Assembly: GCA_027943245.1 (NCBI GenBank)
Contig: JANDJZ010000034.1
Location: 1-64,000, forward strand
Direction: 5' to 3'
DNA from: Acanthamoeba sp. SK_2022b
Lineage: Eukaryota > Discosea > Longamoebia > Acanthamoebidae
Length of the DNA stretch: 64,000 bases
The stretch's first letter is position 1, and the number at the start of each line of letters is the position of its first letter. The translations under genes and the position numbers were made by a program. Positions 26,128 to 32,814 of this stretch are shown here, in pieces. The notes beneath the pieces were generated by a model. It saw nothing but the letters and a program-made list of their open reading frames with translations, did no database searches and had not been told where the DNA came from.

Positions 26128-29100
26128 TTAGTCCACCTCCTCGATGCGAGGTCCAAGGGGAGTGGGTGGCGCGGCAGCAGCGGTGGTGGCGGGCCTTGGA
26201 GAGCCCGGAAGAAGAAGCAGGAGATCGCGCAGTTCGCCAAACAGACCCCGCACCGTATCTAGAATGGATGTGGCTTGGGTTAGGACGTGGGCGGCGGTCT
26301 GCTCCGCTTCTACGACGCCCGCCGCAATCATGCGCTGGGTGTCCGCGATGACGCCGTCAATCTCCCGCTGCACGGCCTCGCTATCGCCCAAACCGGCCAA
26401 CAGGTGATGCAGCCGCGCGCATGCCTTGGCCGCCAGAAGCTCCCATTCTTCGCGTCTGTCCAGCACCCTCTCGCGCAGGAACGCCAGGGCTGCGAGCGTG
26501 GCCATCGCCTGACGTCGCACCGGTGGCGATGAGTAAGCCAAGTCGGGGATATGCAGAGAGAGAGAAAGAGCGATGGGGGAGGTACCGTAGCCGCAGAGCA
26601 GGGCGCGAGCTGGTCCCAGGAAGAGGGAGTGTGTTGCTTCGCATCAAAGCGGAGAACCTCGAGCAGCGCCGGGGTGAGGGCCCACTCGCCTGTGGAAGCG
26701 GTGACCCGCAGTCCGACGCGTGAGCTGAAAGAGGGAGAGGAACACGAGGGGCGGCAGGAGGGGGTAAAAACGCGCACCGTTCGCTTTCTGCAGCGCTATC
26801 AGTTGCGCGTACTGCGCTTCGACCTTGGCCGCCTGCTGCCGACGGTGCTCCTCGATCTGCTTCGACAGGGACACGACCGCGCCCAACGCCATCCCGATGT
26901 TACCGTCGAACTGCGTCGTCTTCCTCTCTGCGACAGCGGTGCCTGTGACCGCTGCGGCCGGCCGAGAAAAGATGTGTACAGCCCACGCAATATCGTCCCG
27001 TTGCTGAGCGGTACGGGCGGCGTACCTCCGCCGCACTGGGCCTCGATCATGCGGCGGATCTCCTGGTCGGCGTCCCTGGTAGCCTCGGCCTCCCTCACCA
27101 TCCTTTCGATGTCTTCCTTGCCAAGCCGCCCCTGCGCACACCCAGGCATGAGTGTAAAAGAGAGAAAAATAGATCGGAAATGAGATAAGAGCAGTGCCGA
27201 TCGTAACGATACAGGCAATAGACAAAGCTACCTTGTCGTTGGTGATCACCATGCGGTCCTCGAGACCAGTGGTCCTTTCGGAGGCGATTATGTTCAATAT
27301 CCCATTGGCGTCGATGTCGAACGTCACCTCTACCGACACTTGGACGGTGGCCTAGGGAGGGGGGCGAGGCGAGGATGACGCACGAGTCAGTTATGGGCCA
27401 GTGACAACCGAGTGCACGGGGAGAGGGGGGGGGCGTACGAGATGGGGCACGGGAAGGGAGAGCCTCCCCAGGAGCCAGTTGTCGGCGGCCATGGGCCGCT
27501 CACCTTCGTAGAACGCGAAGCTCAGTTGGCCATCGGCCGGCACCGTGACCGTGCAGGTCTGCAAGCCCACGCCCAATGAGCCAGCACTCCCAGGCGCACG
27601 CCAAGCGTGGCGACTCGTGAATGGGGCGGGCTGGCCACTGCGGAGACGCACCTGAACCTTGCGGCACGGTATGGTGGTGTTGCGCAGGATCACGGGGCGC
27701 ACCATCCCCGTATCGGCAACGTCGAAGCCTGACCCACACGGTCAGGCCCATTGCCCGCGCACGCGTGAGATTCTCAGCGACCACGCCAGAGCGAGCCCAG
27801 GGAGCCATACCCAGAGTCAGCGGGCAGACGTCAATCAAGAGCACGTCGCCGAGTGCGGAGGCGGTCCTCTGGGTCTTGACCATCTTCGGGGCGGCCGCAC
27901 CGCCGACGCACGACGTCATCTCTGTTGAGCGCCGAGCGTGGTTACTCCTCTCCTGATGTTCATTGCAACCCCCCCCCCGGAGTATGGTGGGCATACCCGG
28001 GACAGCGGAGACCATGGTGCCCTGCGTGGAGTCCTCCCGCTCCTCGACGGCCACGAACGAGGCCTCTGAGGAGGCCACCCCGTACTGGAGGGACGTAGCG
28101 AGGACGCGCTCCCTGATCAGCTCCCGGCGATCGGCGCTCAGCGTCGCAGCCTTGGACTCCTCCTCGAGCTCAGATATGATCTGGCGCGCGCAGGGAGCAG
28201 CGCCCCGAGTCAGGGACCGAGTGGCCGCTTATGGCATCCACACGGCCACTCGGTCTCGAGGTTATGATAGACCGGGTAATAGCGGTCGGCCCATACCCTT
28301 TTGGCGGCAAGCGTGTGCAGAAGCGCTCCGTTGGACGATCCGGCCAGGCGAGCGGAGCACGTCACGGGTCCGTTCGCGCTCCGCGCTTCGAACTTCACCT
28401 CCACGTCTGCCCGAGCGACGACGACCGGTAAGTCAGCTGGTGCAGACCACCTTCAGCTTTGTGTTGCAACACCACGCGTGGCGTCAACGCTCACATACCG
28501 GCGTCCAGCGGGCTGTCCTTGTCGAGCAGCGCGAAGAGGGTCACCTTCTGTCCGCTGTACAGTGGGCCGATCGTCTGTTGGACAGGAAGGTGGACGCATC
28601 TCGCAAGTTAGCCGAACTCGTAGAAAACGCGGACATCCGGGGCCTGGTGAATGGCCTGGCCTACCTGCGGCGCTGAGTCACGGACAGCGAGAGAGCCCCA
28701 TGACACGGCGGCGTCGGTCATGAACGGCTGCAACGCATTGCGAAGCTGGCGCATGACTTTGCCTTCTATGCGCTCCTCCGATGCCACCAGCTCGTACTGT
28801 GGGACGCACGCGGGGTCCGTGCATGGGCATGAGGTAACGAACGGCCGAGTGTTAAGATGAGAGGAGGAGGGGGGAGAATGATCGTACGGTTCCTCGGCCA
28901 GCGTGGGCCACACCTTTGATGAGTCGATGGCTCGCTCCGGCACCAATGCCCAGCGTGAACACGCGCGTGGTCTTGCTGTGCTGCCTCACGCATTGTATCA
29001 CCTGCTCCGTGTTGAACACCTCACCTGCATCCCTCCCCACAAACCGTACGTAGGTAACGAGCGTCTGCGGGGATTGAGAGAGTGGTCCCATACCGTCGGT

Positions 29101-32100: not shown

Positions 32101-32814
32101 GAACGGTCAAAACGGCCCGGGTGATGCCCTGCGGATGCCATGTGAGCAAAGATGTTGATGCGGGTGTGGGTCACGAATAAATAGTACCACGCCTAGCTGC
32201 GCCTCCGCTGTCCTCTTTGCCTCGCCCACCAGAGTAGCGATGACTTCAACTGGCGTGAAAGTCTTGGCGACGTCATCCAGGCCCAGCTGCTGGCGCTCCT
32301 CCTTGGCTCGCGCGTCCAGCTCCAGCTCAAAGCATAGCTTCTACCACCCGGCGACCAGCCAAACCCCTGTCAAACCAAGCACCTTTGGTGTGACGACCGA
32401 AGCAGTGGTCGCACCCCGTTATGTTGCACGATCTTGGTGGCCGGGTGCTGTGCAGCGTAGTCCTGGGCTGATGTGCTGGCGTAGGGCACGCCCAATAGTG
32501 CTCGAGCATGCGCTGCCACCGCTGGGTGATCATCGAAGCGTAGAGACCTCTGCCCTTCCCCACACTCCAAGCCCAACGATCCGTCCTCTCCTGTACATTG
32601 CGCCCTTTTTTAATGCCATTATTTATATTTCTGTTTATTTATTAAATTTTTTTTATGGTGCTTGAATTGGTGAGAGGGCGGTACTAGAGACGAGGCTGGC
32701 GATGGCCGGGATGGGCGGGCAGGCCACGACAACAGTGCTGTTGGTTTGGAGATGTGCGGCGGCCACTAGCTGGTCCCGCCCAATGGATATGCCAAGCGCT
32801 GGAGGCTGGTGCAT
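26128..32814 (-). CDS. Hsp70 split by a VIT-VWA module
   Basis: One gene of more than 20 exons. The N-terminal exons (32814-32685, 32590-32415, 32340-32191, 32128-32062, 31984-31894, 31856-31741, 31663-31542, 31466-31357, 31278-31235, 31160-31004, 30977-30854) join in phase to about 429 residues with the Hsp70 nucleotide-binding domain: RAVLTVPAYFDDAQRRATKD, ITEPVAAALAYGLD, ISRARFEHLNSLLF and EAYGAACQAAIL. The next exon (30721-30488) is in phase, has no ATG, and opens a VIT domain (TVTQSFTNTTANPLETTYVY). A VWA domain follows with the full metal site: DRSGSMSG, GGTEIL and LLTDG. After the VIT-VWA C-terminal part (SLQYGVASSEASFVAVEER), the Hsp70 linker reappears (DVLLIDVCPLTLG), then the substrate-binding domain (FDIDANGILNI), lid and a helical tail. 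No signal peptide; cytosolic. The ATPase residues are degenerate (LGISIGRD, FNMGATTL). Confidence 0.85.

What the first reader, a model, noticed from the sequence alone, without database searches (positions are those of the whole stretch)
26128..32814. Hsp70 whose two halves are separated by a VIT-VWA module
Sequence: 11 N-terminal exons encode an Hsp70 nucleotide-binding domain ending EAYGAACQAAIL; the next exon, in phase and without a start codon, begins a VIT domain, followed by VWA and the standard VIT-VWA C-terminal block. The Hsp70 linker (DVLLIDV) and substrate-binding domain then resume. The insertion falls exactly at the interdomain linker that carries allosteric signals in Hsp70. Knowledge: VIT-VWA pairs (inter-alpha-trypsin inhibitor heavy chains, vault PARP, protist VWA proteins) mediate metal-dependent protein binding. 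Inference: a chaperone-like scaffold whose client binding could be controlled by a VWA ligand instead of ATP. I know of no described system of this kind.
Basis: partly seen in the sequence, partly recalled or inferred. Interest (0 to 1): 0.95.

Follow-up and report, generated by a model that had tools for sequence, protein, structure and literature searches.

The report
Hsp70 interleaved with a VWA protein
An amoeba gene encodes one protein in which pieces of a worn-down Hsp70 chaperone alternate with pieces of a VIT-VWA scaffold protein; the same order occurs in a second amoeba, so it looks like a kept, working design rather than an assembly accident.

Summary
On the minus strand (32814-26128) a 32-exon, 1372-codon frame reads Hsp70 NBD / VIT-VWA core / Hsp70 linker+SBD / VIT-VWA C-terminal domain (CTD) / ...GPRIEEVD, the C-terminus of cytosolic Hsp70. 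The two families are interleaved. A Balamuthia mandrillaris protein (P0140) has the same order. The two group together in a VIT-VWA tree (100/99), share derived changes in NBD and SBD and keep the VWA metal-site motif. ATP-site residues are lost and the first 128 residues show no detectable Hsp70 N-lobe, so an ATP-driven chaperone is unlikely. Most likely it is a VWA5A-type scaffold that displays a dead, remodelled Hsp70. The SBD lies where VWA5A-type proteins have a loop between core and CTD. Relatives carry pieces of actin or a SNARE in that loop, and of eIF5A or 14-3-3 after the core, hinting that the family displays fragments of hub proteins, as adaptors or decoys. The mechanism is inferred; the NBD-VIT splice is not proven by RNA. 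Novelty: new variant of a known kind.

The parts
26128..32814 (-). whole gene model, 32 exons, 1372 aa, Hsp70/VIT-VWA chimera
   Evidence: one open frame, 31 GT-AG introns (mean 83 nt), GC3 0.76 against intron GC 0.57
32263..32814 (-). exons 1, 2 and part of 3: residues 1-128, position of the Hsp70 N-lobe but without detectable similarity; tentative
   Evidence: best piece 3.1 bits, below two of 500 shuffles; no better exon between 32100 and 34400
30866..32262 (-). degenerate Hsp70 NBD (residues 129-396 of the model), exons 3-11, ending EAYGAACQAAIL
   Evidence: 45% identical to the genome's own cytosolic Hsp70 over 266 positions; ATP-site residues changed
30718..30861 (-). junction intron between NBD and VIT (alternative 30722-30853); weak donor
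29625..30717 (-). VIT domain and the strands before VWA (Hyb-1a); no own start codon
   Evidence: 41% identical to Balamuthia
28891..29624 (-). VWA domain with intact MIDAS motif (DRSGS..GGTE..TDGE)
   Evidence: 53% identical to Balamuthia
28040..28890 (-). Hyb-1b, three helices and VITpt2 strand: end of the VIT-VWA core
   Evidence: core as a unit by fold match of relative P0001 to ITIH1; names from PMC10539598
27081..27850 (-). Hsp70 linker (GDVLLIDV), SBD-beta and helix A; the rest of the lid short and degenerate
   Evidence: 53% identical to own cytosolic Hsp70 over 135 positions
26389..26802 (-). C-terminal domain (CTD) of the VIT-VWA family (ALQKANGEW...EEWELLAAKA)
   Evidence: profile of 26 relatives matches residues 1201-1282 at E 2.1e-12; aligned
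26131..26145 (-). C-terminal IEEVD, as in cytosolic Hsp70 (own: AGPKIEEVD; Balamuthia ends LEMVD)

Best explanation
One gene encodes a VWA5A-type VIT-VWA scaffold interleaved with a cytosolic Hsp70: NBD / VIT-VWA core / linker+SBD / CTD / IEEVD. Shown by sequence: the order, the orthologue, loss of ATP-site residues, an intact VWA metal-site motif, a remodelled SBD groove, a degenerate lid, and the EEVD-type end. Inferred: the core is a compact module that starts and ends on the same beta-sandwich, so NBD and linker-SBD leave it near each other, and the Hsp70 parts no longer cycle with ATP. They act as fixed binding surfaces: the SBD for an altered peptide or partner, the EEVD end for TPR co-chaperones. 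The VWA domain binds a metal-dependent partner, by analogy with Dictyostelium Vwa1 perhaps a ubiquitin ligase. Release of the CTD from the VWA domain, proposed as autoinhibition in Vwa1, would expose or reposition the SBD tethered between them. Net effect: an adaptor that brings chaperone-system partners to the VWA partner.
Against: No transcript or protein data. The splice joining NBD to VIT has a weak donor. The two CTDs are only 30% identical, and the Balamuthia end is LEMVD, so TPR binding there is doubtful. No orthologue labelled A. castellanii Neff appeared in the protein searches. In the Hsp70 tree both chimeras are long branches. Ligands of SBD and VWA are unknown. The chimera itself was not folded (P0140 over the length limit).
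Confidence: 0.5

Rival explanations
1. Integrated decoy: the protein displays a look-alike of Hsp70 so that foreign effectors aimed at Hsp70 strike it instead, and the VIT-VWA scaffold reports or blocks the attack. Sister proteins display actin, eIF5A, 14-3-3 or SNARE pieces for the same purpose.
For: Pieces of five different hub proteins after the core in one family; for Hsp70, actin and the SNARE the piece lies before a CTD found by profile. They are fragments (actin 2-72, for example). In the two actin-bearing copies the slot shows pN/pS 1.20 and 1.03 against 0.38, 0.25 and 0.24 in VIT, VWA and CTD.
Against: The rate contrast is not significant (Fisher p 0.07 on rounded counts). No effector, pathogen or immune output is shown here for any of these proteins. 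Adaptor use explains the same fragments. 5 of 10 tested own slots gave no recognisable piece. No CTD was found by profile in the loci with eIF5A or 14-3-3 pieces.
Confidence: 0.2
2. One reading: a chaperone-like client binder in which a VWA ligand, not ATP, opens and closes the SBD.
For: SBD-beta, linker and helix A kept in both species; ATP-site residues lost; MIDAS motif intact.
Against: Five groove positions changed in the same way in both species and the lid is degenerate, so ordinary client binding is doubtful.
Confidence: 0.2
3. Two or three separate genes, or a prediction artefact: a truncated Hsp70 gene beside a VIT-VWA gene.
For: The junction intron is the longest (144 nt) and has a weak donor; no RNA evidence.
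Against: No start codon for VIT in its frame; the SBD sits between core and CTD, and part of the CTD and IEEVD share the last exon, so at least that part is one gene; a Balamuthia protein runs through both junctions.
Confidence: 0.05
4. A decaying pseudogene made by recombination.
For: Degenerate NBD, unrecognisable N-lobe.
Against: 1372 codons open across 31 introns; GC3 0.76; 53% VWA identity, intact MIDAS motif and shared derived residues with Balamuthia.
Confidence: 0.03

Closest known systems
VWA5A / Dictyostelium Vwa1 (intracellular VIT-VWA proteins with CTD)
   Same: VIT, Hyb-1a, VWA, Hyb-1b, helices, VITpt2, then a loop, then CTD (PMC10539598)
   Different: N-terminal Hsp70 NBD, Hsp70 linker+SBD in the loop before the CTD, and an EEVD-type tail
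Cytosolic Hsp70 (own copies C230, C460)
   Same: NBD sequence, linker GDVLLIDV, SBD-beta, helix A, IEEVD end
   Different: ATP-site residues lost, N-lobe unrecognisable, VIT-VWA core between NBD and linker, CTD after a degenerate lid
PARP4 (vault PARP)
   Same: VIT-VWA core, closest solved relative by sequence (E 7.5e-47); own C215, which groups with the Glandiceps PARP4-like protein P0005, and P0005 itself also carry foreign pieces after the core
   Different: PARP catalytic domain; no Hsp70
Inter-alpha-trypsin inhibitor heavy chain 1
   Different: secreted, no CTD (PMC10539598), no Hsp70
Hsp70 with added TPR domain (P0004; P0007)
   Same: Hsp70 in one chain with another domain
   Different: domains added outside Hsp70, not between NBD and SBD

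Membership tests
VWA5A-type VIT-VWA proteins | complete VIT domain followed by VWA | tested here: met
   VIT 1-111 of 111, VWA_3 2-154 of 155
VWA5A-type VIT-VWA proteins | MIDAS DxSxS..T..D in VWA | tested here: met
   motif search
VWA5A-type VIT-VWA proteins | CTD near the C-terminus | tested here: met
   profile E 2.1e-12 at 1201-1282; about 86 further residues follow, ending IEEVD
Hsp70 family, ATP-driven chaperone | phosphate- and nucleotide-binding residues (DLGGGT, GGSTRIP) | tested here: not met
   D199N, G202A, G203T, K271M, R272A, R342N, D366E; E175 and E268 kept
Hsp70 family, ATP-driven chaperone | complete NBD with N-lobe | tested here: not met
   residues 1-128 not above shuffled controls; Balamuthia model starts at profile position 102; extreme divergence is not excluded
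Hsp70 family, ATP-driven chaperone | linker and SBD-beta | tested here: met
   groove residues changed
Hsp70 family, ATP-driven chaperone | helical lid | tested here: inconclusive
   helix A kept; Pfam extends weakly over the shortened remainder
Hsp70 family, ATP-driven chaperone | EEVD C-terminus (cytosolic branch) | tested here: met
   GPRIEEVD against own GPKIEEVD; Balamuthia LEMVD
Integrated-decoy immune receptors | recognised foreign effector and immune output | not testable with these tools
   only the fragment pattern was seen

The most novel reading that the evidence does not exclude
Intracellular VIT-VWA proteins of amoebae, and a PARP4-like protein of at least one animal, are display platforms: the stretch after the core is loaded with pieces of hub proteins (Hsp70 SBD, actin 2-72, eIF5A hypusine loop, 14-3-3, v-SNARE), and the scaffold uses them as bait to sense or neutralise whatever attacks those hubs, an integrated-decoy system outside plants. 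The window gene is the most elaborate case, with Hsp70 at both ends as well.
Probability: 0.2. Interest if true: 0.95.

Novelty: new variant of a known kind. Interest (0 to 1): 0.82.

Why it matters
If right, two well-studied machines, the Hsp70 linker-SBD and the VWA metal site, were wired into one chain with ATP control removed, and the wiring was kept between two amoeba lineages. It offers a natural test of what the Hsp70 interdomain linker and groove can do without ATP. The slot pattern would also give a clue to what the poorly understood VWA5A and PARP4 family does.

Tried and rejected
Hsp70-part tree (31 rows): the two chimeras joined at 99/98, but both are long branches and the program warned that such joins may be false. 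Without Balamuthia the window protein is unplaced. The claim of common origin therefore rests on the VIT-VWA tree, the shared derived residues and the order.

Tandem origin from the neighbouring mitochondrial Hsp70 (39557-36630): rejected; NBD, SBD and tail resemble the cytosolic type, and Balamuthia's Hsp70 part also matches own cytosolic copies best.

Upstream N-lobe exons: none found between 32100 and 34400.

Orthologue in A. castellanii Neff: none among the proteins listed (16 of 16 hits listed; 120 of 2066; 120 of 702). Each search scored only about 7990 candidates. Unannotated or split genes are not excluded. In one search P0140 is the one listed hit of 120 with HSP70 as well as VIT.

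Second allele or copy to check the assembly: none found.

Pieces after the core of own VIT-VWA loci: hand-picked reading-frame pieces from 10 of the 11 fetched loci (L025-L035) were put to Pfam. Actin in L025 and L026, eIF5A in L034, 14-3-3 in L028, a Slu7-like piece in acidic sequence in L029 that may be a neighbouring gene; nothing for L027, L030, L031, L032, and for L035 only a chance-level hit at 0.098. L033, a near copy of L031/L032, was not put in. A CTD profile (E up to 0.01) found the CTD in L025-L027, L030-L033 and weakly L035, in P0002, P0140 and the window protein, but not in L028, L029, L034 or P0005; I had read one by eye in L034.

The relative P0001 was folded instead (mean pLDDT 65.6, pTM 0.59); it tests the core, slot and CTD layout, not the chimera. 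Alignment A2 misplaced the Hsp70 rows and was not used.

Literature: no listing of ten searches of the open-access library showed an Hsp70-VIT-VWA protein; not all of them aimed at it, apart from two papers I saw listings only, and subscription papers are mostly not held. Residue numbering of Hsc70 and DnaK, the EEVD/TPR link and the plant integrated-decoy idea are recalled.

Full report
What is there. The window lies in contig C505 of a 44.9-Mb, 1129-contig genome. On the minus strand, 32814-26128, exon pieces were placed by translation and joined at splice sites. The result is one frame of 1372 codons over 32 exons, 31 of 31 introns GT-AG, mean intron 83 nt, GC3 0.76 against 0.57 GC in introns. 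The least settled junction is the one that matters most: NBD to VIT, intron 30861-30718 or 30853-30722, the longest of the model and with a weak donor.

Domain order. It is the C-terminal domain (CTD) of other VIT-VWA proteins (QKANGEW...EEWELLAAKA; aligned; a profile built from 26 relatives matches it at E 2.1e-12). The last exon ends GPRIEEVD; the genome's own cytosolic Hsp70s end AGPKIEEVD. The order is therefore Hsp70-VWA-Hsp70-VWA-Hsp70. Because the SBD lies between the VIT-VWA core and its CTD, and part of the CTD shares the last exon with IEEVD, adjacent genes cannot explain that part. For the NBD-VIT link, the VIT frame has no start codon and is closed by a stop at 30736-30734.

Independent support. 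Three searches of a database of 5.8 billion proteins were made, each scoring about 7990 candidates. The one drawn from the VIT-VWA region (702 hits, 120 listed) found P0140, a Balamuthia mandrillaris protein of 1240 aa with HSP70 7-286, VIT 313-421, VWA 558-714, then GDLLLIDV and an SBD, then the CTD (1087-1196), ending SLEMVD. Identity by part: NBD 32%, VIT+Hyb-1a 41%, VWA 53%, Hyb-1b to VITpt2 41%, SBD 39%, CTD 30%. In a tree of 32 VIT-VWA rows the two are one clade at 100/99. In the Hsp70 tree they also join, but as long branches, so I rely on shared derived residues. Of 141 columns at least 90% invariant in 96 Hsp70 rows, both changed 34, and 14 of these to the same residue; the control pairs gave 33 of 233 and 60 of 253. 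The other two searches listed no protein with HSP70 and VIT together.

State of the Hsp70 parts. In the detectable NBD, D199N, G202A and R342N are shared by both species; K271, R272 and D366 are also changed in the window protein, while E175 and E268 are kept. Residues 1-128 and pieces of them score no better against an N-lobe profile than the best of 500 shuffles, and no better exon lies upstream to 34400; the Balamuthia model starts at profile position 102. So the sequence gives no basis for ATP binding, though extreme divergence of the N-lobe is not excluded. The linker and SBD-beta are clearly kept (53% identical to own cytosolic Hsp70), but groove positions I401, E402, T403, V436 and I438 carry F, D, V, L and F in both species. 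Helix A is kept; the rest of the lid is short and only weakly similar.

The slot. In the chimera the SBD sits in that loop. Other family members have other proteins' pieces there or nearby. Own C384 and C662 hold actin residues 2-72 before a CTD found by profile (Pfam 5.5e-12 and 2.4e-11; for the C384 piece PDB E 5.8e-27; CTD). A. castellanii Neff P0002 holds a synaptobrevin piece (666-722) before its CTD, and an N-terminal UBA-like domain. Own C405 holds an eIF5A piece with the SKTGKHG loop after the core (Pfam 5.1e-10; PDB 3.9e-6); its CTD was read by eye only and not found by profile. Own C215, which groups with a PARP4-like protein, holds a 14-3-3 piece after the core (2.5e-11; 9.2e-10 for a shorter piece). 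The PARP4-like protein of Glandiceps (P0005) has an actin piece, profile 3-53 (29.5 bits, cut-off 27), and a 14-3-3 piece below its cut-off (28.7 against 33.2). No CTD was found in these last two. Of 10 own loci tested, 4 have clear pieces, one an uncertain Slu7-like piece, 5 none. Between the two actin-bearing copies the slot has pN/pS 1.20 and 1.03 against 0.38, 0.25 and 0.24 in VIT, VWA and CTD, not significant (p 0.07).

Reading. The firm result is a conserved, interleaved Hsp70/VIT-VWA protein without a recognisable ATP site. The most economical function is an adaptor: VWA binds a metal-dependent partner, CTD docking controls access, and the SBD and EEVD end offer Hsp70-type surfaces. The bolder reading is a family of decoy displays.

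Noticed in passing
G000:C384 (L025, about 5529-5885) and G000:C662 (L026): VIT-VWA paralogues with actin residues 2-72 between core and CTD; slot evolves faster than core between the two copies (not significant).
   Followed up: partly
G000:C405 (L034): VIT-VWA paralogue with an eIF5A fragment including the hypusine loop (SKTGKHG) after the core.
   Followed up: partly
G000:C215 (L028) and P0005 (Glandiceps talaboti): PARP4-like proteins of an amoeba and an acorn worm both show a 14-3-3-like piece after the VIT-VWA core (the worm's below Pfam's cut-off); the worm protein also an actin N-terminal piece.
   Followed up: partly
P0001, P0002 (A. castellanii Neff for P0002): VIT-VWA protein with N-terminal UBA-like domain and a synaptobrevin (SNARE) piece between core and CTD.
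   Followed up: partly
G000:C521 (L029): PARP4-like locus followed by a Slu7-like piece in acidic sequence (E 2.5e-8); could be a neighbouring gene.
   Followed up: no
window 39557-36630, minus strand: ordinary mitochondrial-type Hsp70 gene with introns, about 4 kb upstream of the chimera; not its source.
   Followed up: partly
window about 36474-34457, minus strand: gene resembling folylpolyglutamate synthase between the two Hsp70-related genes (read by eye, recalled motif).
   Followed up: no
G000:C310, C16, C111, C730: uninterrupted DnaK-type genes that look bacterial: perhaps contaminant or symbiont DNA in the assembly.
   Followed up: no
window 32893-32884, minus strand: CATAAAAAGG, TATA-like, about 70 bases before the first ATG; none seen by eye in the junction intron.
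   Followed up: no
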